From contig JAPNXP010000012.1 of the NCBI GenBank assembly GCA_028753945.1, positions 930,001 to 994,000 of the forward strand: 64,000 nt of DNA, given 5' to 3'. The position numbers and the translations under genes are program-made. The notes below the pieces were generated by a model. The model did no database searches. It saw nothing but the letters and a program-made list of their open reading frames with translations, and was not told the DNA's origin. This DNA comes from Hexactinellida sp. DTS-2022. Lineage: Eukaryota; Porifera; Hexactinellida. Numbering within the stretch: the stretch's first letter is position 1; the number at the start of each line of letters is the position of its first letter. This document shows, piece by piece, positions 12,690-62,272 of this stretch.

Positions 12690-13695
12690 AGTATAATTTT
12701 CGTTATATACAGCGTTCAATTTACATAACGACAACTTTTTTTGTGCGCCTTGGTTTAGTAGGAGCTCAGTCTCACGCCTAAATTACTCTATTTGCATTAC
12801 TTCCGATGGGGCCAAATCCATAGGGAATTAGAGATTTAAAATTTAATCCCAGTCCCATTCAGAATTGGATTGGTATGTTTCGATTTTCGCTCGCCTTGAA
12901 TAGTTTCGTTCAAAGCCTGGATGAATCCCTAGCCGTTACAAGAAAGTTCCAAATTACAACCGGCATATCATTCGGAGAGGAATATGCTTGAAATACATTG
13001 CGAGTGCTAGACTGCTAGTTACAAAACGCGCATCGCTCGAAAGAGCAGCCTAATAGGAGTAATATCGAATGAATCTTCGAATAAACTGAATTGGTAACAT
13101 GAACTTACTCATATATTAGCACTTCTAACGTTAATTATCGCGTAAATAGGCCTAAAAGACTCAAATTTATCAATGTGAAGTTATAATAATCATGTTTTCA
13201 AACCAACATGTGTGAAAAACACATTTTGGATAATTAAAATAATTTAAAAAAGCAATGAAGCTATATTATATACCAAAATAATCGAAATTGGCGACATCCT
13301 ATCCCTGATAATGTATTTATGCCCTCTACAGAAGCACCATTCCTTTTGAGGTGTAGAATTAGTTGGATATTTGCCAAGAACATTTGAAATGTGTCCACAC
13401 TTTCCTGCAGAAGTGTCATGCTAAAAACTTATTGTCGTCAAATGTCGGGTGACTGTATTCATATTTCAGCACCTCGGGAATTTACATTGGTTTACATTAG
13501 AAAGCACCATTGTCAATGGATACGTTAGTAGAGGTTCAGTTAAATCAATTCTACGGGTACTAGCTAACGAAAATCAAATACATTGAGACGTTTCCAATGT
13601 TTACATATTTATACCAAGGCTGGTCCAAGTGCATTCTTATATGAATACAATTTCGATGCCTTTTATAACATTTCTTCCTTTAGGTACTTAAGCGA
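12690..13695. other. Upstream region of the intact NLR gene
   Basis: No gene or delimitable repeat is seen. A pyrimidine-rich stretch ending CTTCCTTTAG at 13675-13683 lies just before the receptor start codon and could be a splice acceptor of an upstream untranslated exon. No clear TATA-type promoter was picked out. Confidence 0.4.
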
Positions 13696-16600
13696 ATGGC
13701 ACAAAAAGTGTTAACAGAAATAAGAATTCTAAACGAATTGTCCAACGAATTGACCGTGGAGGACGTTTCCAGATTGATTTTTTTCATGAATCTCCCAGCC
13801 GGACTTTGTGAGGAGAATTGCGATGGAGGCAGTTTCTTGAGAGCCATGCGTCGGTGGGAAGATTTCAATCCGAATGTATTTCACCAAGCATTAACCAGCA
13901 TGAAGCGTGCAGACCTCATAGCAATCGCTAGTAAACTGCCTTGGTTATGCAAATCACAGCCAGCATTAGAAAGTGAGTCATTTGCAGAAGAATTGTCCAT
14001 GAAAACGTTTCTTCGATTACTACGAACAGAACTAACAAAGAAGGAATGGAATGTCATTGTGATTAGCATTAGCAGTTATTTAAGCGGGAAAGATGATTTT
14101 GACAGTGTCATCTCTGTGTGTCTGGATTTGCGGTTAATTAATGCGGAACTGAAGGTACTGCAAGAAATGCTAAAAGGGATAAACCGAATGGATGTTTGTA
14201 CGAAAATAGGACAGTATGTGGCACTATTCGCAGGCATGAGTGAAGAAGAATTTATCTTCAAAATGAAGAGGGAATTAGTGACACAGGCCAAAGAACTGTT
14301 GGAATGGGAAGGGAAATTAAAACGATTCCTTGAGACTCGAAATAAGAAAGTGAAAGAGATGTTGGGTAAATGCGACTCCGTGTCTCTAGCCAGTGTGTAT
14401 GTTGACCTGACTATAGTGAAACAGGAACCCAGAGAGGTTAACCTGGAAGATGAAACAACCTACAACGAAATAGCATTTTTAAGGAAAATTGCTAATAAGG
14501 AAATAGACATTGTACCTGTCGACTTTACTGAAGAACTGACAACCTACAAATGTTCGGATAATGAAATATGGTGTTTGATTGGGAATCCTGGGTGTGGGAA
14601 AACTTTTCTTTCAAAGAGAATTGCACTTCGATTTGGTGATAATGAATTGACAGATATTTCCTATTCCATTGCTATCCCGTGTCGCAACGGTGAATGGCAT
14701 TCGATGGAATCCACCCGCGTCGAAGATAACAAAGAAGTGACACCTGAATTTGTCCAGGATTGGCTGTGTTTGGGATTACCCGTGGCATCTGATTGGGCCA
14801 GAGATCTAGTGAAGCATCTAGCAAAGTCTGATGGAGAGGGGCTCCTATTGATACTTGATGGACTCGACGAGTTCACTAAGAAGATTCCATTTGAAAAGTC
14901 ACTACTCTACATGCTGCTAACCAGACAGACTCTGCATAGAGCCACAATAATAATAACAACAAGACCGGGGGCTTGGACAGATATTTCATCTCAGTACACA
15001 CTACTCATTGACAGGTTTTATCAGGTGCTAGGCTTTTCCCCAGAGAATAGAGACCTCTACTTCGAGAAGCAAATTATGGATCTTAGAAAGTTGGGAGTGT
15101 GGTTGAATTTATTGTCTCGCTATGACGAAATTAACCAGCTTTCTCTGATACCCGTGAATGCGTCCCTCTTCGCGGCCCTCCTGAAGGACGAGTCGGTGAC
15201 TATCGAGACGCTAACACAACTGTACAGAGAACTGACCTGCTACTTGATACGCCGACAGCTCACCAGGATGGCTCTGAAGGAATTAGCCAAAGTAATAAAG
15301 TTGGAATTGTTTGATGAATGCGTGTTGGATTGTCTCTACAAGATTGGACGAATCGCATTGCTGGGTGTAGCCAGTCGGGAACTGACTTCCACGGAAACTG
15401 TCATCATGACGATTAACCATGTGGAGATGGAATGCCATTGTTTGGGATTAGCGCACGAATTCTACACCAAAGAAGCGGTAGGCATTGTGAAGAAGGTGTG
15501 GGCGTTTGCGCATTTAACCATGCAGGAGTTCTCTTCTGCTATATTCCTGAAGTCGACTTCCTGGACCAAACAGTGCTTGAGTGTGCGCTATATAGCTGAT
15601 AGTGATGAGCACTTCTCAGTTTACAAAATGGTTGTCAGGTTTTTATGTGGACTCCTTATCGAGAGATCAGCTGTTCTCCATACTATTCTCTTCCGGAAAT
15701 TAATGCCTGAAACGGTTGAGAATCTACCTTTTTACCACCAAATGGGATATGACATTACAAATCTATTATCATTGACAGGCTGGTATGAACATACTAAGAA
15801 ATACTTCGATCTTATTCCCATTGTTATCGAGTCCAACTGTTCCCACATTCATAATGCCCTGAAACTATTCCTTCCCCCATCTGTCTCGCTATACCTGAAT
15901 GGTAGGGTACTCCCAGTGTCCCCCAATGAGTGGCTGTGTTTCATTCAGTCATTGCAACTGGTACACCACATTAAGCTGATTTATGTCGACACAAGGCATA
16001 TCAGTATAGAACAGTTCGAATCACTGATGAAAGATATTAAAACTTGCCAACTCGACCAGTTAGTGATCCTATTTCGACAAACAATTGAACAAATAAGCGC
16101 GAAAAGCCTAGCGTACACTGAGTTAATCAACGGAACTGATCTGAATGTTCGTACTCGTATTTCTATAGAGCTATCCTATTGTGAAATAGAGGAGCTTACA
16201 GATATCCCTTTGTTCTCTCCTCCTACCAATCAATATATTAATGGCGTGAGACTCTACGATAGTAAATGCTCCAATGAATTACTCCACCAACTAACTAACA
16301 ATGTTGTATCTTCCCAACACTTTCAATACCTGTCTATTGATGAATCAGAATACGCAGACATCATCTTACCTGCACTAACTCAAGCCACACAGATAAAGGG
16401 ACTATACATCGATACTTACTCTCTATCTAGAGACAGTGAACCACTGATGGGGGAACTAGTGCGTAAACTCACACAGTTAACAGAAATTAATTATCTGGAC
16501 TACTCCCTCCTACCTCACTTGGCACATCTGACTGGACTCACCTATCTAGAGATAAAGTCTGGAATTAACAAATCATTATCTGACAATCTACTGCAAGTAC

Positions 16601-17064
16601 TGAATACGAATTGCAACACACTAAGTATACTCGAGCTATGGAGCTTAGAAGAGATAGGATTCCAGAGATGGACAGAATTCCTAGCTGCTCTGAAAAGCTG
16701 TGCTAATCTAGTCAAGCTAGGACTGTGCTTTACTTCCATCTCATCAGATGATAGTTCTCAATGGGCACCCACACTGAGATGTCTTCTTTCATTGCTTTAT
16801 CTAAACTTACAGCAGGTAACCCTGTCTGATGCTGGAGTGTTGGCTGTGTGCCAGGGACTAGCCAAACATCGAACCATTAAGGCATTATATATAAAATTCT
16901 GTGGCCAGAGCTCTCAGTCGTGTGAAGCACTCACTAACCTGATCCCTACTCTCAGACAGCTGGAGATACTGGTAGTAGATAGGCTCTCACGCCCAGATCC
17001 AGTACCTATAGAAGTACTGAGACTAGTCGCGAAGGAGTACTCTATCAGAGGAAGCTTTACATAA
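13696..17064 (+). CDS. NACHT-LRR (NLR) innate immune receptor, death-fold N-terminus
   Basis: Single uninterrupted exon of 1122 codons. Residues about 8-75 and 95-170 have the helix pattern of death-fold domains and look most like a tandem DED pair (LTVEDVSRL; MKRADLIAIASKLPW; INRMDVCTKI). This is my inference. The NACHT NTPase follows: Walker A GNPGCGKT at 296-303, Walker B LLLILDGLDEF at 383-393, sensor-1 ATIIITTRPGAW near 416-427. From about 800 to the end are ribonuclease-inhibitor-like leucine-rich repeats (LLYLNLQQVTLSDAG, LTYLEIKSG). NLRs of this layout are cytosolic sensors that oligomerise through NACHT and recruit death-fold partners, and they are greatly expanded in demosponges. 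No transmembrane segment was noticed. Decayed relatives lie at 4481-7800 and 18785-19161. Confidence 0.93.
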   Translation: MAQKVLTEIRILNELSNELTVEDVSRLIFFMNLPAGLCEENCDGGSFLRAMRRWEDFNPNVFHQALTSMKRADLIAIASKLPWLCKSQPALESESFAEELSMKTFLRLLRTELTKKEWNVIVISISSYLSGKDDFDSVISVCLDLRLINAELKVLQEMLKGINRMDVCTKIGQYVALFAGMSEEEFIFKMKRELVTQAKELLEWEGKLKRFLETRNKKVKEMLGKCDSVSLASVYVDLTIVKQEPREVNLEDETTYNEIAFLRKIANKEIDIVPVDFTEELTTYKCSDNEIWCLIGNPGCGKTFLSKRIALRFGDNELTDISYSIAIPCRNGEWHSMESTRVEDNKEVTPEFVQDWLCLGLPVASDWARDLVKHLAKSDGEGLLLILDGLDEFTKKIPFEKSLLYMLLTRQTLHRATIIITTRPGAWTDISSQYTLLIDRFYQVLGFSPENRDLYFEKQIMDLRKLGVWLNLLSRYDEINQLSLIPVNASLFAALLKDESVTIETLTQLYRELTCYLIRRQLTRMALKELAKVIKLELFDECVLDCLYKIGRIALLGVASRELTSTETVIMTINHVEMECHCLGLAHEFYTKEAVGIVKKVWAFAHLTMQEFSSAIFLKSTSWTKQCLSVRYIADSDEHFSVYKMVVRFLCGLLIERSAVLHTILFRKLMPETVENLPFYHQMGYDITNLLSLTGWYEHTKKYFDLIPIVIESNCSHIHNALKLFLPPSVSLYLNGRVLPVSPNEWLCFIQSLQLVHHIKLIYVDTRHISIEQFESLMKDIKTCQLDQLVILFRQTIEQISAKSLAYTELINGTDLNVRTRISIELSYCEIEELTDIPLFSPPTNQYINGVRLYDSKCSNELLHQLTNNVVSSQHFQYLSIDESEYADIILPALTQATQIKGLYIDTYSLSRDSEPLMGELVRKLTQLTEINYLDYSLLPHLAHLTGLTYLEIKSGINKSLSDNLLQVLNTNCNTLSILELWSLEEIGFQRWTEFLAALKSCANLVKLGLCFTSISSDDSSQWAPTLRCLLSLLYLNLQQVTLSDAGVLAVCQGLAKHRTIKALYIKFCGQSSQSCEALTNLIPTLRQLEILVVDRLSRPDPVPIEVLRLVAKEYSIRGSFT

Positions 17065-23237: not shown

Positions 23238-23446
23238 AATTAGTATAGCTAGTGTTGCTAGTATAGATATTAGATAGTGTTGTTACTTGTTAGTATAGAT
23301 AATGTGTTAGTGTAGTATCTGGGGCCGCAGTGGTACAGAGAGACAGACCACTGGCGGAAGGAGGCACAGTCGTGGACTGTGGCAATACGGATGCGTGACC
23401 ATCCGGCACCCACAGACGTGGAGGTCATGACTCATGGGGTCGAGGG

Positions 23447-23617
23447 CAGGGCCGGATTTACCATTAGGCTAAGTAGGCTATAGCCTTCGGGCCACTACAG
23501 GACCAATGTACAGGACACCAATGGGCCACTACAGGACCACTACCGACCAATGTCAATCATGTTCGGGCTACTTGTGTGGTTCAGCCTTCAGGCCACTCAA
23601 GGGTAAATCCTGCCCTG
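23447..23617. mobile_element. hAT-type MITE inserted in a hammerhead
   Basis: Ends CAGGGCCGGATTTACC / GGTAAATCCTGCCCTG with a perfect 8-bp duplication GTCGAGGG (23439-23446, 23618-23625). The target is exactly the hammerhead cleavage triplet GUC plus the first strand of stem I. Confidence 0.92.
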
Positions 23618-23665
23618 GTCGAGGGTCACTCTCCTGACTAGTCTTTGGAATGGGACGAAACCCCA
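23616..23665 (+). ncRNA. Hammerhead ribozyme, degraded copy
   Basis: GTC cleavage triplet, stem I GAGGG/CTCTC, then CTGACTAG where the core should read CTGANGAG, stem II GTCT...GGAC, then GAAA and CCCC. The core change should abolish catalysis, and the upstream stem III strand is separated by the hAT insertion. Confidence 0.75.
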
Positions 23666-23730
23666 CAAAAAGCAGTACGGCTGGCTAGTCTACAGTTACC
23701 CATAGTGGAACAGCACCACTTTACTACAAG

Positions 23731-25139
23731 TAGTGACCTACGTTATATAAGGCCTATGCACCAACTTTGCGAAATTGGACCATGGATTAAAGGAAGGCTA
23801 TTGATAAATAGGTTATTTATCGTTATCTAAATAACTAGTACCTCATAAATGTTCTATAACTATATAGGAACATGATATCAAGGTATACATAGCACCCGTC
23901 AGAATTGAGCTATGTCATCATTTGATTACGTAATCGCTATTTTTGGTGGGTAATATCGTGTTTTTGTAGCCTGCTTTTAACATAGTTAGACGCGTTATAA
24001 ATGTTCAAAATTGGAACATGATGATACCCATAACTAGTTAGATGAAATATATCGAAATTATCAATGAAATGTTGACACATTCCTCGGTTACCAGGGAAAT
24101 GTATATTTCCTAAATGGGCCATAACTCAAAAACTATCTATTTTATGTAAACTAGGCTAGTGCTGATCTATCCGCAATAGGTAACTTCTTATTCATTGATA
24201 ATACATTTTCTAGGCCTAACTTCAATATTCTTTGAGATAATGAGATTATTGACACTTAATTCTTTATATGGTAAAACACTATTATCTCAAAAATTATTGT
24301 AGTTAGGCCTAGAAAATGTATTATCAATGAATAGGAAGTTACCTATTGCGGATAGATCAGCACTAGCCTAGTTTGCATAAATAGATAGTTTTTGAGTTAT
24401 GGCTCATTTTAGGAAATATACATTTCCCTGGCAACCGAGGAATGTGTCAACATTTCATTGATAATTTCGATATATTTCATCTAACTAGTTATGGGTAGTG
24501 TTGTAAATTTCCAAAAAATTTGTTTTCTATGGAAATTTCTGGAAAGAATACGTATTTCAAATTATGCTTAGGAACTTTATTTGAAATTGCCAAAATTTTT
24601 GTGCTTCTTAAGTTAGACTGTCATGAGGGAAAATAACAAGCGCACAGTAACAACTCTACATTATAGATATGGTTTATCAAAATTAAAAAAACTAGGTACC
24701 TATAGGCTATATATAATAATTTTTCCTTGTAAAATTTCCTGAAATTTAGCTATTTTTAGGAAATCCCGGAAAAATCCTGAAATTTTAGGAAATTTCCTAG
24801 GAAATTTTCTGACCTTACAACACTAGTTATGGGCATCATCTTGTTCCAATTTTGAACATTTATAACGCGTCTAACTATGTTAAAAGCAGGCTACAAAAAC
24901 ACGATATTACCCACCAAAAATAGCGATTACGTAATCAAATGATGACATAGCTCAATTCTGACGGGTGCTATGTATACCTTGATATCATGTTCCTATATAG
25001 TTATAGAACATTTATGAGGTCTATCACTACTAGTTATTTAGATAACGATAAATAACCTATATATCATTAGCCTTCCTTTAATCCATGGTCCAGTTTCACA
25101 AAGTTGGTGCATATGCCTTATATAAAGTAGGTCACGCTA
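23731..25139. mobile_element. Long inverted-repeat element, about 0.5-kb arms
   Basis: The two halves mirror each other from TAGTGACCTACGTTATATAA (left) to TTATATAAAGTAGGTCACGC (right), turning near 24260. Arms carry TTCAAAATTGGAACATGATG and GATTACGTAATC. No protein is coded. Single-arm relatives lie at 26990-27445 and 34480-35060. It interrupts the hammerhead repeat and is itself interrupted at 24496-24825. Confidence 0.85.
24496..24825. mobile_element. hAT-type MITE (TAGTGTTGTAA) built on GGAAATTTCC
   Basis: Ends TAGTGTTGTAA / TTACAACACTA with a perfect 8-bp duplication GTTATGGG (24488-24495, 24826-24833). The subterminal sequence repeats AGGAAATTTCC. It lies in the right arm of the long inverted repeat, so it is younger than that element. 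Confidence 0.92.
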
Positions 25140-31206: not shown

Positions 31207-31442
31207 ATAGGCGTCAAGTTTTGGAATATTTAATCAAAGTTGGAGAGGAGGCCAATGGGAGGTTTACTAAATATTTCCAGATTTGTTTCTGTGCAGAAAC
31301 AAAATCTGGATATATTGAGTAAAACAAACGTGATTCTCACCCTCTATCATCCCTTGGTCGATGAAAAGGACCACTTTCATACAAAAATTAAATTCACCGA
31401 CAGGCCCGGTAGTCGCCCCCCAAACCCCAAACTTGGAGCCTA
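31207..31442. mobile_element. Possible MITE
   Basis: CATAGGCGTCAAGTTTTGG on the left is mirrored by CCAAACTTGGAGCCTAGG on the right. The target duplication is not evident. The short frames on both strands here are accidental. Confidence 0.4.
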
Positions 31443-31599
31443 GGTTAATGTACAACAGGAATAATACTTATAGGGCAGTGTTTCTCAAAATGGGGGTAGC
31501 GACCCCTATGCGGTCTTGGAACAATTTCTAGGGGGTTGAGACTTGAGAGATACAATTAATTTCCCAAAATTCATTACCAAGCTAAAGTTTATCCCTCCT

Positions 31600-31910
31600 G
31601 TTATAGATATCACCTGTAGCCTTCAGGAGTATAGTCCTTGGGAAAGACTATAGGTGGCAGTACGGGCAGACTCATAGGTAAGTGAGTATTCACAGGCCGG
31701 CAGTACGACTGGTAACCATAGTCTAGGACTATGGAGAACATGGGCAGTACGGCACTCGCAGGAGCTGCGGGCTGGAGCGAGAGGTGCGACAGTACGCATG
31801 GTGGTCGAGGGTTACCCTCCTGATGAGTCTCTGCAATGGGACGAAACCACACACGTAACATCCTTACGGGATGGGGTCAGCTAGAGCGGCTAGTCTTCGA
31901 TACTAGGACG
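31600..31910 (+). repeat. Hammerhead-bearing repeat, second type
   Basis: GC-rich block in AT-rich surroundings with repeated words CAGTACG and ACTATGG before the hammerhead at 31801. It resembles family H only in the ribozyme, so the carriers differ. The ends were not defined. Confidence 0.6.
31801..31850 (+). ncRNA. Hammerhead ribozyme, type III, intact
   Basis: All conserved parts are present in order: stem III strand GTGGT, cleavage triplet GTC, stem I GAGGG-TTA-CCCTC (perfect), core CTGATGA, stem II GTCT...GGAC, core GAAA, closing stem III strand ACCAC. Each invariant base (C3 U4 G5 A6 N G8 A9; G12 A13 A14; A15.1-U16.1) is kept. Stem I closes on three bases, so self-cleavage as a monomer may need partner or dimer contacts. 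Confidence 0.9.
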
Positions 31911-31936
31911 TGGCCTCATCTCGTAACACTCCTTCC

Positions 31937-33021
31937 ATGGCCTACTATAATACGGCTATACATGCTGCCGAATCATAGTAGAAATAAGAGTCCAGTTTTG
32001 TAAATTTATTCTAAGCTAAACTATGCTTCCTATTGGCATAATTTGTAACGTGTATGGGGTAATCAACCATTTCGAGTCCAATGGAACCACTTTTGAGAAT
32101 CTCAGATTTGTGGTTAAGCTGTTTAGGCGCCATTTAACGATGACACCACAAATATACTATATATACAATTCGAGTCTAAAGAACTAAAGAAAAAGAAAAT
32201 AATTTGCTAATATACTTAGAATACATTTTCCGAATATATAATGACAATGAATATGTATAAACCAGCAATTATATACGTTTTATGGACGAAAATAGTAAGT
32301 TGTAATTCGGATAATACTTGTATTTTAGCATGTGGTTAAGTGCTCGACAAAATAAAATTTTGATGGTGGCTAATTAAGCCACCACCTCACTTTTTCTGGT
32401 GGCTAATGAATAAACAACGGCCGGTTAAGCAAACCACTGATGACTTAACAAAGTTTTGATGCCGTAAAACAACACTAATGTTAATAACAAATGATGCAAC
32501 GAAACATATAATGTACATAAAGTCAATAATCCACAATATATTGTAGATTAGCCACCAAAGGCAAAATTTGGTGGCTTAAATCAGATTTTTGGTGGCTAGC
32601 GCCACCAAACCACCATATTTGTCGAGCACTGATGTGGTTGCTTTATAATTTTTGAAAAATTTTAGAATATCGCCATTTTGTGATTTAGTAGCCTTTGGGG
32701 TATGAAATATATCCCTATTTTAGTATTCCTATTATAAAATTATTAGAAAGTAGGAAGTAACTGAAATTTATGATATTTGAATTTTTTTTCATTTTACCAA
32801 AAATTGTTACCGTCACCATTAAATGGCGCCTAAACAGCTTAACCACAAATCTGAGATTCTCAAAAGTGGTTCCATTGGACTCGCAATGGTTGATTACCCT
32901 ACATACAATACAAATTATGCCAATAGGAAGCATAGTTTAGCTTTGAATAAATTTACAAAACTGGACTCTAATTTTCTACTATGATTCGGCAGCATGTATA
33001 GACGTATTATAGTAGGCCATG
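31937..33021. mobile_element. Foldback element with about 210-bp inverted ends
   Basis: Left arm from ATGGCCTACTATAATACGGC to about 32145 (TTTAGGCGCCATTTAACG). The right arm mirrors it from 32815 to 33021. Perfect 8-bp duplication CTCCTTCC (31929-31936, 33022-33029). No transposase is seen. A hAT-type MITE sits inside (32338-32631). A frame at 32715-32933 is accidental. Confidence 0.88.
32338..32631. mobile_element. hAT-type MITE built on GGTGGCTAA words
   Basis: Ends AAGTGCTCGACAAAAT and ATTTGTCGAGCACTG, with an 8-bp duplication ATGTGGTT (32330-32337, 32632-32639). Interior words TTTGGTGGCT occur in both senses. Confidence 0.88.
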
Positions 33022-42983: not shown

Positions 42984-43357
42984 ACTCTTTTATGAATTTC
43001 TACATTTTAAATAAATCTCAGATATTGAGACAAATGGATTACAATAAATACATTTAAAAGATTACATACTATATCAACCAACAAAGAGATTTTGAGGCAC
43101 TGTAGAGACATTTAGCAACAAAAATGCATTTTGGCGAAGCCAGGTTTTTATATTGAAAAATGTTGGCCGATATGCTACAGAATATTCTCGTCAATAGGAA
43201 CATCAATCGAAATTAGTCTGTAAAATCCAAAATTCGTATTCCCCGGAGTCATTCGCATACATTTATATATGCTAGGGGAATTAAACCTTGTACTCATAAA
43301 ACCAATATTAAGATAGTGTGGTAGTATAGATAGTGTTGTTACTTGTTAGTATATATA

Positions 43358-43524
43358 CAGTAGAACCTCGTTAATACGAACACGGTTAATACGAATTTCC
43401 GGATAAGACGAACAACAGTTCCACAAAATCAGGTCCCTACAATGGCTATTCAATGGGTATTACTCCGGATAAAGCAAACGAATTTTTTACCGTCCGTTGG
43501 TGTTCGTATTAACGAGGTTCTATG
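43358..43524. mobile_element. pogo/Tigger-type MITE
   Basis: Ends CAGTAGAACCTCGTTAATAC and, reversed, CATAGAACCTCGTTAATACG (one base lost), flanked by TA. It splits the 5' part of the hammerhead repeat. Confidence 0.85.
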
Positions 43525-43659
43525 TAGTGTGTTAGTGTAGTGTCTGGGCCGCAGTGGTACAGAGAGACAGACCACTGGCGGAAGGAGGCACAGTCGTGTA
43601 CAGGTGTACTGTGGCAATACGGATGCGTGACCACCCGGCACCCACAGACGTGGAGGTCA

Positions 43660-43711
43660 TGGGGTCGAGGGTCACCCTACTGATGAGTCTTTGGAATGGG
43701 ACGAAATCCCA
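43660..43711 (+). ncRNA. Hammerhead ribozyme, type III, nearly intact
   Basis: TGGGG + GTC triplet, stem I GAGGG-TCA-CCCTA (first pair G-A mismatched), core CTGATGA, stem II GTCT...GGAC, GAAA, stem III TCCC. The catalytic core is complete. The single stem I mismatch next to the core may lower activity. Confidence 0.85.
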
Positions 43712-43803
43712 CAAAAAGCAGTACGGTTTGCTAGCCTACAGTTACCCATAGTGGAACAGCACCACTTTACAACAGTTAGTATAGTATTAGTATTAGTATA
43801 GAT

Positions 43804-55075: not shown

Positions 55076-55079
55076 GCAC

Positions 55080-55121
55080 TGTTGCATAGGATTCTGACCC
55101 GCGTAGGATTCTGACCCGCAA
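55080..55121 (+). repeat. Left terminal inverted repeat of Ginger element
   Basis: 42 bp identical to the right end. It contains the direct repeat ATAGGATTCTGACCCGC / GTAGGATTCTGACCCGC, a likely integrase-binding word. Confidence 0.9.
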
Positions 55122-55265
55122 GTCGCAATTTCATTTTTGTGTAATCTGTGTTCTATCCCTAGTATCTCGGTTACATATAAAAAAGCTACTTTCTAGTATT
55201 TTACTTACCCTAATTTTATTATTGTTTCTAGATTTTCAACTTCAAATTTGACATTGACAATTATT

Positions 55266-58200
55266 ATGGATGCGAGCGAGTATCAGACAGTTCTTGGATA
55301 CCTCCAAACTCAAGAGATTCCTAGCGAAATCAAGAATGATCGCTATAAGAAGAAGAATTTTATCAGGAAGTGCAAGGGGATTTGCGTTCAAGACCAAAAA
55401 CTGATGAAGGTAATAATTTCTCAAACTATTTTCAGATGGTATTTCTAATCAATATTTTATTTAGAGCCTGAGGAAGAAGAACGGAACCTTAAAATATCTC
55501 GAGATTCCAATTGACACAGAAATAAATGACATTATTGGCTTCTACCACAATGTCACTCACCCCGGAATCAATACTACTCTTGACGGGATTCGAAACAAAT
55601 ACGATTGGAGTGGCATTTACAACGACATCGGGGAATTTGTAAGCTATCTTTTCGCATTAATTTCAATAGAATTCATTTTTAATTAGTGTTCGTCATTTAG
55701 ATCAAAACTTGCCACACCTGCCAGACTTCTGCCGCTCTGTTACCTCAGCCTCAGCGCGAACTCCAGCCCATCGCCCCTCCAGAGGAACCGTGGTATCATT
55801 GCGGGATAGATCTTGTCTGCAATATGTCCCGCACAGCATTTGGATTTCAGCATATTTTGGTAATCGTATGCTACTTGAGCAAATTTGTAATCGCCAGACC
55901 CCTCAAATCCAAGACATCAAGGGAAATATTGGACTGTCTACAGGATATCTATCTATCATTTGGTGTACCCAAAATCCTCCAACATGATCAAGGAACTGAA
56001 TTCTCAAGCAAGGTATATTCTAATGCAGTTTTGATGCTTTCCAAATTGTGAATATTATCGTTAGTTATTAATATATTATCTACTAATAATATAATATATA
56101 GAATGTATAACCTTCATGAACAAATAATGTGTTTATTTACAAATGCATACAAATACTTCGACATAAGTACAATTTCATTGGATTTGTGAGAGTGGTGGCG
56201 TGTACTTGAGTAGCTGACTTAAATTCATTTTTTAAATACTGTTCCTTCAGGAATTTCAGGATTTCCACAAGAAATTAAATGTCGACACCCGAAGAACCAC
56301 TGCCTACCACCCGCAGAGTAACGGACTTGTCGAAGCTCACAATAAAATTTTGAAAACGTAAGTTCTGTAATTAACTAATAATTCTTAAAAATTAAATAAC
56401 CAACAAATTATTTACTTACTCAATTTATTGAATGTTGAGATTATATTCCCAATTCATTACTAAATACAATAATTATAATCAGGGAATTAAAGGATTCACA
56501 AACGAACTTATTGATCTTGAACTGGACGAACTGAATGAACTGAACGAACGCTGGCACTGTTATTGAATTTAATGTGAACGTAAACAAACTGAACGTGCGT
56601 CAATTTGAGATGGGTTTATTCAGTCCATTCGTGAACCTTACATTCTTTTGATAATAATATTTATTATTCAAAACTAGCCTTAAGTTAATTTTATTTAAAT
56701 AGCTTAAATTTCCAATATTATTCCAAACGCTTAAAATTCAATGCTTACAATAATTATTAAGCCTTGAATTTGATTTGTCCGTTGTTTTAGAAAAATTAAC
56801 TATATGATGTGCAATGGGGACAAAGAATGGGTAGATAAATTACAGCCAGCAGTACTAGCAGCCAATACTCAGACTAAACGATCCACAGGCTACACACCAT
56901 TTTATCTCATGTTCGGTAGAGATTTCGATTCCTCTAATCTACTTAATCTTATCACCTCTCCAAATAACCCCGGCTTCAAATCACCAACAATTATTGAAAC
57001 AGAAACAGAATTAGCCCACCCGAATATTACCCCAATGGACATTGATGAAATTACAGATCCTTACGAACTCCCAAATAACGATAACGAATGGGCAGAAACA
57101 ATTGCTGCAACTCGTAAGACGGACAAGAAAAATGCAAGACAAAACATCAAAGAAGAGCAAAAAGTCCAAAAGAAAACCTACGACCGCAAAGTCAAACGCA
57201 ATAGGTGTGTTGATATGTCTTACTATGTTTCACTTTGCTATTGTAAATCTAATAAAAATCATTTTTTAGAATTCCTTACATATTTCAAATGTATTGTGTT
57301 TATTGTTGTTTCCGAGATAACATCTTACGAAACATAATGAGGTGGGTGATACTATCATGTGATGTCTAATAATAGTAACCTTAGGTATTTGAATGTGTTA
57401 TTGTTATTGCGAAAGTTCTGGTTCAATTACGCAACTTCCGAAATTCTTATTGTGCAATGCATTGAGTGTACTGCTTTAGGTCAGAATTTGAAGAAGGAGA
57501 TCAGGTTATAGTACACAATATCAAGAAAGCAAAGAGACTCCCAGGAACAAAAGAAGCAAAGAAATACTTAGGCCCATATTCAGTAGAGAAAGTAACACCA
57601 AGCCACCTCGTAGCACGAAAAGATCCCAACAGCACAAAAGTAACAAAATTACCTCTCCATCTCTCTCGAAAATATTTCCCTCGCAAACAACCGGTAAGTT
57701 AACTTTAGTTGATTGTTTACCCTCTTACTAATGACTCATTCCTATTACAATTTAGGTTACACCAACGAAGAATCAAACACCCGACATCACATCAACCGGA
57801 TTTTCTATTTCGCATGCAATTGGTAAGTATTTTCAATTGTTTACTGCTATTATTAAAAATACGTTATTACCAAGCACGGTTATGAATCAGACACTGGCAG
57901 GGTTGTAAATAAATCATTTTAGATTTCAAATCAAATCAAATCAAATAATTAGCCACTCAAAATTATCTCAAATCAAATCAAATATTTGAAATATTTGATT
58001 TGATTAACAACACTAGTCATGATATTTCTACATACTATTCGAACTAGTTCAATCCTAAAATTTTAAACACACTTTATTTGATTTCATTTAGAACCATTTG
58101 AGGAGACCCTGACTTTAGGAGCAACTGAAGAAATCTATGAAATCCCTGAACAACGAGGAACAGAAGAAAGTATTGATGCTACACTAACAACCATAAAACC

Positions 58201-59380
58201 TCAAGTATTAACAGCCCTTAACAACCGTACCTATCTAACCCCACTACATAAAACGCTCGCCACCAAAGCTGAATCACTAACATCACTAAAATCACTATAC
58301 GATTACCATCCATCGACTGAACTAGATTTTACGACCAAAGAATCGATCGCCATCGCTACCGCTAATTGGTACAACGAATATCGCAATAGCCATCCCTGTA
58401 ACGATCCAATACAAATCAGAAAAGACTATGATTATCCACTCGCAGTTCTGTTACCTGTTGTGATTCAGTTAATATCACCTAAGCATCAACTAGAAGAGAT
58501 AATTACCATCGATACCAGTCCATCACCATCTAACCATCTGAATACCATCTCACAGATTGCTTCACTACCAATAGCATATCCTATTTGGGGGGGAGAGCAC
58601 AATGACATCATGCAATCCAATACCTGCTCAGTGGACAACATCCTAGCCATCCTAAGTTCTAAGAAAGCAAACATACTCGATGCATTGAACTTAATCGGAA
58701 CCTCACCAACTGACACCAAATTCTACCATCTGTTCAAACTGGCTGCTACTAATAAATTCGAAGAACTGCGAGATTATATCGCCAAACAACTCGGGCTGGA
58801 TATTCAATATGATTCAACTGGTTTGATGCAATCATACAATTTTTTTGGATCAGAAGGCAACATCATTCAATTCCTAAGAGCAGAAGACCTATGCAACGAC
58901 AGATACATTACCAACTTCAAATGCCACCACTGCACCAACATCTTTAACACCACCAATATGATAGGAAATATTGGCAGCGTATTCACTAATCTGGAGTCTT
59001 CTATAAACCGAAAACTAATTCCAACTAAATGTAAGTCCTGTGGATCAAGTGATGCAATCTGTGAGAGGTTATCTGGGCATTTTCAATCCATTCCTATACT
59101 GCTAACAATTGAAATTGGACACATTATAACACAAAGCAAACAAGTATTAATATCTGACATCGACCAACAATTTACCATCAGTCATCAACAACAGACATTA
59201 CATTATAAACTAGCTGGCTTTTCCATCTTCGTTAGCAACCACTTTTACTCTATCCTATGTGACAACGGACAATTTTATAAATATGACGGCATGAGAAACC
59301 CGACTGTCGAACTATGGGACTGTAACCAATTCATCGGATCACTCAATACTATATTCTACCTCTTGCACTCTTCTGACTAA
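55266..59380 (+). CDS. Ginger-type integrase fused to a USP-like cysteine peptidase, 8 exons
   Basis: Exons 55266-55409, 55465-55638, 55701-56012, 56251-56357, 56791-57204, 57480-57693, 57756-57822 and 58092-59380 all end in GT..AG introns and keep one frame: 906 codons, no stop. H2C2 finger H76/H80/C110/C113; integrase core D143 (HCGIDLV), D202 (QHDQGTEFSSK), E238 (HPQSNGLVEAHNKILK), a DX35E spacing; GPY/F motif GPYSVEKV at 415. The C-terminal 300 residues carry C656 (SNTCSVDNILAIL), paired CxxC knuckles (CHHC, CKSC), H861 (HFYSIL) and D876 (KYDGM), the order of a papain-fold USP peptidase. Integrase cuts and joins element ends. The peptidase role is unknown; ubiquitin or SUMO removal is a guess. 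Introns are 55-433 nt. Confidence 0.85.
57898..58015. mobile_element. MITE inside intron 7 of the integrase gene
   Basis: CAGGGTTGTAAATAAATC at the left mirrors GATTTGATTAACAACACTA at the right. The interior is AATCAAATCAAAT words. The ends resemble 24496-24825. It lengthens intron 7 to 269 nt without touching its splice sites. Confidence 0.6.
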
Positions 59381-59571
59381 TTCTTCTTCTTATTATTCAG
59401 TCGAAAGCGCTCAAAGGCAAGGTACATCGACCTTGTGGGGACCTCTGCTAGAGGCTAGTCAGGCTACGCAATCCCTATCATGGTGAGCCCAGATAATGGT
59501 AACGCGACCTGCAACGGCATGTCCCCAGTGGCGACTGACAGCGTAACACTTCCAACACTCAACCAACCCAA

Positions 59572-59624
59572 GTGTATTGCGTGACAGGCAACGCAACTGA
59601 CGAGTCCGGGCCGGGACGAAACAC
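59572..59624 (+). ncRNA. Hammerhead ribozyme, type III, in the Ginger element
   Basis: Stem III GTGT, cleavage triplet GTA (cut after 59576), stem I TTGCGT-GACAGGCA-ACGCAA (six perfect pairs, 8-nt loop), core CTGACGA, stem II GTCC-GGGCCG-GGAC (four perfect pairs), core GAAA, stem III ACAC. Every invariant hammerhead base is present, and A15.1-U16.1 pairs. It lies 191 nt after the stop codon of the integrase gene, same strand, so it would lie in the 3' untranslated region of that transcript. The surrounding 59397-59640 is distinctly GC-rich. Confidence 0.92.
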
Positions 59625-59835
59625 AAATTGGAACCAGAAGTAAGTGAGTTTCTAGACTAATTTATTGACTATAACATTAAAGTATATTCTATAACTGTCT
59701 AGTATAACGGCCACTTAGAATAGGTCCCCACATGACTTCCCATATTATTATTATCCTGTATATAGCTGTCATCTGTCATAATGGCCATTTTTGAACAGTC
59801 CCTAGGGTAGCCGTTATTTACAGGTTCTAATTATT

Positions 59836-60137
59836 AGTATAACAGTGCGGTCTGTTAGAATAGCAGTGCGGTCTGTTAGTATAGTAGTGCGGTCTGTTAA
59901 TATAGTAGTACAGTCTGTAATGTACTAGTGCGGTCTGTTAATATAGCAGTGCGGTCTGTTAGTATAGCAGTGCGGTCTGTTAATGTACTAGTGCGGTCTG
60001 TTAATATAGCAGTGCGGTCTGTTAGTATAGCAGTGCGGTCTGTTAATGTACTAGTGCGGTCTGTTAATATAGCAGTGCGGTCTGTTAATATAGCAGTGCG
60101 GTCTGTTAATATAGCAGTGCGGTCTGTTAGTATAGTA
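59836..60137. repeat. 21-bp minisatellite
   Basis: About 14 units of TATAGCAGTGCGGTCTGTTA(A/G), with a variant unit TGTACTAGTGCGGTCTGTTA recurring every third unit (a 63-bp higher-order repeat). A frame across it (60-bp periodic VRSVNIA) is an artefact. Confidence 0.92.
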
Positions 60138-60153
60138 GTACTTTCTTATAATA

Positions 60154-60340
60154 CAGTAGAACTCGGATAGTACGTACCCCCTCGGAGAAGAGAAATTAGT
60201 ACGTATTATCGGAGTGTACGTACGAACAGATTTGACACTACATAGAGATGCATATAAATTGACAAACTTTGTTCATACAAGTTAGGCGTATTAAGCCGAA
60301 GTACGTACTAAACCAGGTACGAACTAACCGAGTTCTACTG
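60154..60340. mobile_element. pogo-type MITE inside Ginger element
   Basis: Ends CAGTAGAACTCGGATAGTAC and, reversed, CAGTAGAACTCGGTTAGTTC, flanked by TA (60152-60153, 60341-60342). Confidence 0.87.
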
Positions 60341-60987
60341 TATATAAAAGTATAAATGGAGAGGATTGGATTGTGGCTGTAGGGGAGGAGGAGGCCACAC
60401 ATTACTTGTTTTCTTTCTAGAATATATGTCTTTCACATGGAGTTATTGGTAAATAGTGTAGAAGATATACCTCACAAATTCATTAATTGCTCAATTAGAA
60501 AGTTGGATGTACGTATGAATATAGATTGTGGTTACAGAAACCTAAGGGACAAGCTTCTACTTTTACATCCTATTCAACACAGTTTAATAATTATTACTCC
60601 AACTTATATTTTCTTTATTCTTAATAAAGTAATGTATTTATTACTATTTTCTTTGTCAATGAATTTTGTATTATTATTTATTAATTAAACTTAATTTGAA
60701 TCTGATTAACAATGCGAATAGAATCACTACTTTTGCTAAAGGTATTCCGTACAAAGAGAGTGGATGGATCTAAAATTAGAAATATCTTAGTAACATTGGT
60801 TCACATAACCAAGTTGGATAATTATCGACTTCAGTAGTTTACAAATTATCTAAGTTAGACAAGCTAAAAATATCGTAAAATAAGCTACGTCTATAGCAAT
60901 TCAATAATCATAGCTAGTATGCAATAATGTTATTGTGAAAACCGAGATAGGCTCGATAATACAATCATAATTGATATAATATAATCA
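60341..60987. other. Interior of the Ginger element, no gene accepted
   Basis: AT-rich. The frame 60437-60688 is hydrophobic but driven by A/T composition and has no recognised domain. Confidence 0.4.
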
Positions 60988-61139
60988 ATGCGGGTCAAAA
61001 TCCTACGGATGACTATCGTAGGATTTTGACCCGCACCATGGATTCGCTATTATAATTTTGTATTGCGGGTCAGAATCCTACGCTCTTGACTACCGTAGGA
61101 TTTTGACCCGCACCATGGATTTGCTATTACAATTTTGTA

Positions 61140-61181
61140 TTGCGGGTCAGAATCCTACGCGGGTCAGAATCCTATGCAACA
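61140..61181 (-). repeat. Right terminal inverted repeat of Ginger element
   Basis: Mirror of 55080-55121. Preceded by two extra inverted copies of the GGTCAAAATCCTACGG-type word around 60988-61110. Confidence 0.9.
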
Positions 61182-61185
61182 GCAC

Positions 61186-61746: not shown

Positions 61747-62272
61747 GCTCCGATTTGGGTACAATTTCACTATGTTACCTCATCTAGATATTTGTGAAGT
61801 GTTAGAGGTTATATTTTTATTAGATAGAGCTCTGAAAATAATGAGTATTGGTCCAAAGAGGGAGAGAATCGGATAAAAATTGACTTAGTTAGGCCAAATT
61901 TTGTGATATAAGCCAAAGTCTATGGGAAATTGAAAATAAGCAAGATTACTTGGAATATCGAATAAAAATTTGAAAAAATTGAATAAAATAATAAATAAAA
62001 ATTGAAAATTTATTCGTGATTGTAATTATATAATTTAGGATGATTCAGCATGGTTATAAGAGTGTCAAATAAGTTTTCAAATATTTGTTGTGCTATTTCA
62101 ATTTCCCATAGACTGTGGCTTATAACTCAAAATTTGGCCTAACTAGCCAATTTTTATCCGATTTTCTCCCCGTTTGGACCAATACTCACTATTTTCAGAG
62201 CTCTATTCAATAAAAATTCACAAAAATATCTAGATGAGGTAACATAGTGAAATTGTACCAGGAGTGGTACTC
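61747..62272. mobile_element. Foldback element with about 200-bp arms
   Basis: GGTACAATTTCACTATGTTA on the left (61758) is mirrored at 62240-62262. The arms also share GGCCAAATTTTG and CATAGACTGTGGC-type words. The centre is AT-rich. The target duplication was not found. Confidence 0.75.

What the first reader, a model, noticed from the sequence alone, without database searches (positions are those of the whole stretch)
59572..59624. Textbook hammerhead ribozyme downstream of the Ginger integrase gene
All invariant hammerhead bases and three well-formed stems occur on the coding strand 191 nt after the stop codon. Animal hammerheads are known from Penelope-like elements, satellites, retrozymes and some 3' untranslated regions. 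I know of none in a Ginger DNA transposon. Cleavage would remove the poly(A) tail from the integrase-peptidase mRNA, a possible way to limit transposase dose.
Basis: partly seen in the sequence, partly recalled or inferred. Interest (0 to 1): 0.85.

Follow-up and report, generated by a model that had tools for sequence, protein, structure and literature searches.

The report
Self-cleaving RNA motif inside a transposon
A well-formed self-cutting RNA (hammerhead ribozyme) does sit just after the gene of a cut-and-paste transposon in what looks like an animal genome, but three other hammerheads in the same stretch suggest it may have landed there with a short repeat rather than being a built-in control of the transposon.

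Summary
The hammerhead at 59572-59624 is real: full core, stems III/I/II of 4/6/4 bp, predicted cleavage after A59576, 191 nt past a stop codon; a strict descriptor gave no hit in 300 simulated windows. Rfam's only match there is type III, below cut-off (25.9 against 48.5 bits). It lies inside a 6.1-kb Ginger-like DNA transposon (55080-61181, inverted repeats, duplication GCAC) whose spliced 906-codon integrase gene is open. At such density a 6.1-kb element holds one by chance with probability about 0.10-0.27 (0.05-0.15 on the sense strand). So the motif is confirmed, but that it belongs to Ginger and tunes transposase dose is unproven; a nested hammerhead-bearing repeat seems somewhat likelier, though its target duplication and flank links failed chance tests. 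No second Ginger copy was found in the collections open to me. In native context a competing hairpin may weaken cleavage.

The parts
59572..59624 (+). type III hammerhead ribozyme; predicted cleavage between A59576 and U59577
   Evidence: descriptor, MFE fold, Rfam RF00008 25.9 bits, below gathering 48.5
59407..59618 (+). GC-rich noncoding block holding most of the ribozyme (GC 0.57 against 0.38 around it); possible nested repeat
   Evidence: best two-change-point segmentation; no null was run for it
55080..61181 (+). Ginger-like DNA transposon, termini TGTTG...CAACA, about 51-bp terminal inverted repeats
   Evidence: inverted repeat I2, ends checked
55076..55079 (.). left target-site duplication GCAC
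61182..61185 (.). right target-site duplication GCAC
55266..59380 (+). predicted transposase gene, 8 exons, 7 GT-AG introns, 906 codons open
   Evidence: script splice model; Integrase_H2C2 3.9e-07 and rve 1.2e-07 in exons 2 and 3
59834..60139 (+). 21-bp tandem array TTAATATAGCAGTGCGGTCTG, 14.6 copies
59555..59575 (+). competing hairpin (ACACU 59555-59559 with AGUGU 59571-59575) that sequesters the 5' strand of stem III
   Evidence: fold of 59540-59660 and pair probabilities
59676..59681 (+). possible poly(A) signal ATTAAA downstream of the ribozyme
   Evidence: motif search
31799..31852 (+). second hammerhead, type III, core intact
   Evidence: RF00008 53.7 bits, above gathering
43659..43712 (+). 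third hammerhead, type III, mismatch at the first pair of stem I
   Evidence: RF00008 48.0 bits, just below gathering 48.5; descriptor
23617..23662 (+). fourth hammerhead, core damaged (CTGACTA); insert of about 179 bp just upstream
   Evidence: RF00008 28.5 bits

Best explanation
59572-59624 is a genuine type III hammerhead of intact design. It most likely came in with a short, GC-rich, noncoding hammerhead-bearing repeat (retrozyme- or SINE-like), a kind of sequence that recurs in this window, and that landed in the 3' untranslated region of an intact Ginger-like transposon. When the transposase gene is transcribed through it, the RNA would cut itself after A59576, leaving a transposase message without its poly(A) tail and so lowering expression. 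A competing upstream hairpin would make cleavage partial. Shown by sequence and computation: the motif, its fold in isolation, the element, the open gene model, three sister hammerheads. Inferred: nesting, transcription, cleavage, effect on dose.
For: Motif beyond chance. Four hammerheads in 64 kb, all + strand; two lie in copies of one interspersed repeat, 23271-23734 and 43327-43780. The best GC segmentation around each hammerhead gives a GC-rich block (0.50-0.57 against 0.31-0.38; the segmentation was told to include the hammerhead and has no null), and no frame of 120 codons or more is listed through these blocks. Ginger's 3' part holds an apparent nested inverted-repeat element, 60151-60343. 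An 8-bp direct repeat GACTAATT (59375-59382, 59655-59662) brackets the block. Only one hammerhead lies in the element, so it cannot cut out a unit-length RNA.
Against: The 8-bp repeat is not beyond chance: 214 of 1000 random element positions gave 8 bp or more, and in these flanks an unrelated 9-bp repeat is longer. The block has no blastn match elsewhere in the window at E 1e-3, nor does its hammerhead match the other three at that level. Flank motifs shared with the other loci (GTTAGTATAG, GCAGTRCGG) were chosen after looking; an 8-mer test showed no excess, and 20, 29 and 32 of 400 random positions reach the same match length for three flank sizes. No empty site or second Ginger copy was seen, so residence in the Ginger family is not excluded.
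Confidence: 0.55

Rival explanations
1. The ribozyme is a resident part of this Ginger family: a 3'-UTR self-cleaving element that removes the poly(A) tail and keeps transposase dose low.
For: It lies inside the element bounds, on the coding strand, 191 nt after the stop, with core and stems intact next to an open 906-codon gene model. It is not a copy of the repeat that holds the other hammerheads (no blastn match). Rodent Clec2 genes carry a hammerhead in the 3' UTR (PMC6155905, figure-legend passage).
Against: Background density makes the overlap unremarkable; the block differs in composition from its surroundings; no second copy seen.
Confidence: 0.33
2. The motif is a decayed or chance hammerhead-like sequence without activity.
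For: Rfam score below gathering; stem III formed with probability 0.01-0.14 in the four longer contexts folded, and stems I and II at only 0.12 in one of them (59500-59660); folding energies not below shuffles.
Against: All core bases and three stems intact; 0 of 300 simulated windows gave a strict hit; in the two short contexts the ribozyme folds as expected with stem III at 0.70-0.74; helix I of 6 bp with an 8-nt loop and helix II of 4 bp match what is stated for most type III hammerheads, though loop II has 6 nt where 4 is given (PMC7936874, passage).
Confidence: 0.12

Closest known systems
Type III hammerhead ribozyme (Rfam RF00008)
   Same: core, topology with open stem III, 6-bp stem I, 4-bp stem II
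   Different: loops off the family consensus, score below gathering; found in an apparently animal genome, where type I is described as the usual form (PMC7761336, passages)
Retrozymes of plants and animals
   Same: short noncoding hammerhead-bearing sequences, repeated in the genome (seen here for 23617 and 43659)
   Different: animal retrozymes are described with type I hammerheads in tandem at low GC (PMC7229834, passages); here type III, single, in GC-rich blocks; long terminal repeats were not seen but not searched for in particular
Ginger1 DNA transposons (Bao et al. 2010, PMC2836005, passages)
   Same: H2C2 and DDE integrase, GPY motif, TGTNR ends, 4-bp duplication, size, introns
   Different: duplication GCAC, not CCGG or CCGT; 7 predicted introns against at most 4 in their table; OTU/Ulp1 domain not detected; hammerhead present (the word 'ribozyme' is absent from that text)
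HDV-like and insect genomic type III hammerheads (PMC7936874, passages)
   Same: type III in animal genomes, isolated copies (termites)
   Different: those have longer helices and a 4-nt loop kiss (GCCR with YGGC); here a possible 3-bp GGC/GCC, which 34% of shuffled loops also reach

Membership tests
Hammerhead ribozyme type III | CUGANGA and GAAA core, UH cleavage site, stems I, II, III with open stem III | tested here: met
Hammerhead ribozyme type III | Rfam RF00008 gathering score | tested here: not met
   25.9 against 48.5 bits; a curator's cut-off rather than a defining feature of the fold
Hammerhead ribozyme type III | loop I-loop II tertiary contact | tested here: inconclusive
   3-bp GGC/GCC possible; 34% of shuffled loops reach 3 bp. 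Stem I is 2 bp longer than stem II, a difference said to go with pseudoknots in type III (PMC3088659, supplement legend passage)
Hammerhead ribozyme type III | self-cleavage | not testable with these tools
   needs transcription in vitro
Ginger1 transposon | Gypsy-like integrase with H2C2 and DDE | tested here: met
   PF17921 30.5 bits, above its cut-off 25.5; PF00665 32.3 bits, E 1.2e-07, just under its cut-off 32.6; D, D, E read by eye in the translation
Ginger1 transposon | GPY/F motif | tested here: met
   LGPYSVEKV read by eye in the translation
Ginger1 transposon | YPYY motif near the N terminus | tested here: not met
   string not seen by eye in the translation; degenerate forms not tested
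Ginger1 transposon | TGTNR termini, 40-270-bp inverted repeats, 4-bp duplication | tested here: met
   TGTTG; about 51 bp; GCAC
Ginger1 transposon | duplication CCGG or CCGT/ACGG | tested here: not met
   GCAC; given as 75% and 24% of cases, so not fully exclusive. I therefore say Ginger-like, not Ginger1
Ginger1 transposon | C-terminal OTU or Ulp1 protease | tested here: inconclusive
   only weak zinc-ribbon hits in Pfam; phmmer to UCH-L5 E 0.67; AlphaFold model useless, pLDDT 32.7
Retrozyme | two hammerheads bounding a unit that is excised and circularised | tested here: not met
   one hammerhead in the element
Penelope-like element | reverse transcriptase with minimal type I hammerheads in terminal repeats | tested here: not met
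   element encodes an integrase and the motif is type III; no dedicated reverse-transcriptase search was run

The most novel reading that the evidence does not exclude
A family of Ginger DNA transposons carries a type III hammerhead in the 3' UTR of its transposase gene as a heritable, self-limiting switch: cleavage strips the poly(A) tail, and the competing upstream hairpin (ACACU/AGUGU against stem III) sets how much intact message survives.
Probability: 0.28. Interest if true: 0.8.

Novelty: new member of a known kind. Interest (0 to 1): 0.45.

Why it matters
In the passages I read, animal hammerheads are tied to retroelements, satellites and a few host genes. One that works inside a cut-and-paste DNA transposon would be a new setting, and a simple RNA means of self-limitation for such elements. 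Apart from that, four type III hammerheads in 64 kb of an apparently animal genome is itself unusual, since type I is described as the animal form.

Tried and rejected
Relatives: the 58082-59377 exon against viral contigs and genome contigs, an integrase exon against viral contigs, a terminal-repeat pattern against viral contigs, ribozyme patterns against genome contigs and viral contigs: no relatives. A general hammerhead-core pattern gave 28 viral contigs; at E up to 1 the five matches of 59381-59700 to them all lie within 59591-59627, at and around the core, so I treated them as unrelated; I did not test each for a full fold. Blastn of 59383-59662 against phages: none at E 0.01.

Nested-insert proof by target-site duplication: not beyond chance. 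Link through flank motifs: striking by eye, but 8-mers shared with the three other loci (27, 40, 33) do not exceed random positions (mean 29.9, 95% point 45), and 20, 29 and 32 of 400 random positions match h2 and h3 as well. Extra structure around the ribozyme: none beyond shuffles. Loop kiss: not beyond chance. The idea that the block is an exon (donor-like GTAAGT at 59640; acceptor-like tract before 59401 by eye) finds no open frame through it; left open. AlphaFold of 58544-59377: useless, so no fold search was made.

Full report
Observation. The sequence at 59572-59624 is a complete type III hammerhead: stem III GUGU/ACAC, cleavage site A59576, stem I of 6 bp with an 8-nt loop, CUGACGA, stem II of 4 bp with a 6-nt loop, GAA. 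It begins 191 nt after the stop codon ending at 59380. A strict descriptor found two sites in the window and none in 300 simulated windows; a relaxed one found four, all on the + strand, against 9 hits in 150 simulated windows. Rfam scores it 25.9 bits, below the gathering score of 48.5. Helix lengths and loop I fit those given for most type III hammerheads in PMC7936874 (passage); loop II has 6 nt where 4 is given.

Other hammerheads. The finding does not mention three more. 31799-31852 scores 53.7 bits and is the only one above gathering. 43659-43712 scores 48.0 and has a mismatch at the first pair of stem I. 23617-23662 scores 28.5 and has a damaged core (CTGACTA). The last two lie in copies of one interspersed repeat of about 285 bp. 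Each copy appears to have been hit later by a short inserted element; the one in the 23.4-kb copy landed in the ribozyme and left GGTCGAGG on both sides.

Host element. Inverted repeats of about 51 bp with ends TGTTG...CAACA, flanked by GCAC on both sides, bound 55080-61181. A splice model with seven GT-AG introns gives an open frame of 906 codons. Exon 2 matches Integrase_H2C2 above its cut-off and exon 3 the rve core just under its cut-off. GPY is present; the string YPYY was not seen. Bao et al. (PMC2836005, passages) describe Ginger1 with TGTNR ends, 4-bp duplications of CCGG or CCGT, a Gypsy-like integrase, and an OTU or Ulp1 domain. The element is Ginger-like; duplication sequence and YPYY are not met and the C-terminal protease is unproven.

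Does the ribozyme belong to Ginger? The background matters. With three hammerheads in the other 57.9 kb, 0.32 is expected in 6.1 kb and the chance of at least one is 0.27 (0.15 on the sense strand); counting only one of the three it is 0.10 (0.05 on the sense strand). These numbers are rough, since two of the three are copies of one repeat and one is damaged. The best GC segmentation around each of the four gives a GC-rich block (0.571, 0.503, 0.526, 0.521 against 0.308-0.380 around), but the segmentation was told to include the hammerhead and no null was run. Ginger's 3' part also holds an inverted-repeat element at 60151-60343 and a tandem array. These facts favour a nested repeat. Against it, 214 of 1000 random element positions give a direct repeat as long as the bracketing one, the block has no blastn match elsewhere in the window, and flank motifs shared with the other loci are weak on testing.

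Mechanism. If the gene is transcribed to the ATTAAA at 59676 or the AATAAA at 60623, cleavage after A59576 would leave the coding part without a poly(A) tail. This follows from hammerhead chemistry and is not shown here. A hammerhead in the 3' UTR of rodent Clec2 genes is recorded (PMC6155905, figure-legend passage), and a ribozyme put in the 3' UTR of worm genes is used as a tool (PMC10403566, start of abstract in a search listing). In the native context an upstream ACACU pairs with the AGUGU that includes the 5' strand of stem III; modelled stem III probability falls from 0.70-0.74 in two short contexts to 0.01-0.14 in four longer ones, at a cost of 1.7-3.2 kcal/mol, and in 59500-59660 stems I and II also fall to 0.12. 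Tertiary contacts are not in that model. With one ribozyme only, no unit-length RNA can be cut out.

Host. The window encodes a NACHT protein with weak DED and LRR matches, NHL-repeat proteins, a G-alpha and a G-patch protein, so an animal is likely; the species is not known to me. Type I is described as the animal form and type III as mostly of plants (PMC7761336 and PMC7229834, passages), with exceptions in termites and flies (PMC7936874, passages).

Verdict. The ribozyme is confirmed as a motif. Its being a working part of Ginger is open, at about 0.3. Of ten library searches, eight concerned hammerheads and two Ginger alone; only paired the two words. Their listings, many of them capped, showed no hammerhead in a Ginger element. 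Two hammerhead surveys and the Penelope hammerhead paper that I tried to open are not held, so prior report is not excluded.

Noticed in passing
31799-31852: Strongest hammerhead of the window (RF00008 53.7 bits), type III, in a GC-rich block 31395-31970.
   Followed up: partly
23271-23734 and 43327-43780: Two copies of an interspersed repeat of about 285 bp that carries a type III hammerhead.
   Followed up: partly
23438-23625: A short element, with inverted ends by eye, inserted into the hammerhead of the first copy and flanked by GGTCGAGG on both sides, so that the cleavage triplet is duplicated.
   Followed up: partly
23672, 31657, 31744, 43718, 59863-60122: GCAGTRCGG occurs 12 times in the window, all on the + strand and all within about 600 nt of one of the four hammerheads (expected 0.23); the motif was chosen after looking, and 8 of the 12 are in one tandem array.
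   Followed up: partly
59834-60139: 21-bp tandem array, 14.6 copies, downstream of the ribozyme inside the transposon.
   Followed up: no
60151-60343: Short element with 28-bp inverted ends, nested in the transposon; a similar end (ACAGTAGAAC) is seen at 43357-43526.
   Followed up: no
61758-62259: Long near-perfect inverted repeat in three adjoining arm pairs.
   Followed up: no
13684-17064: Single open frame of 1126 codons with a NACHT domain and weak DED and LRR matches, NLR-like.
   Followed up: no
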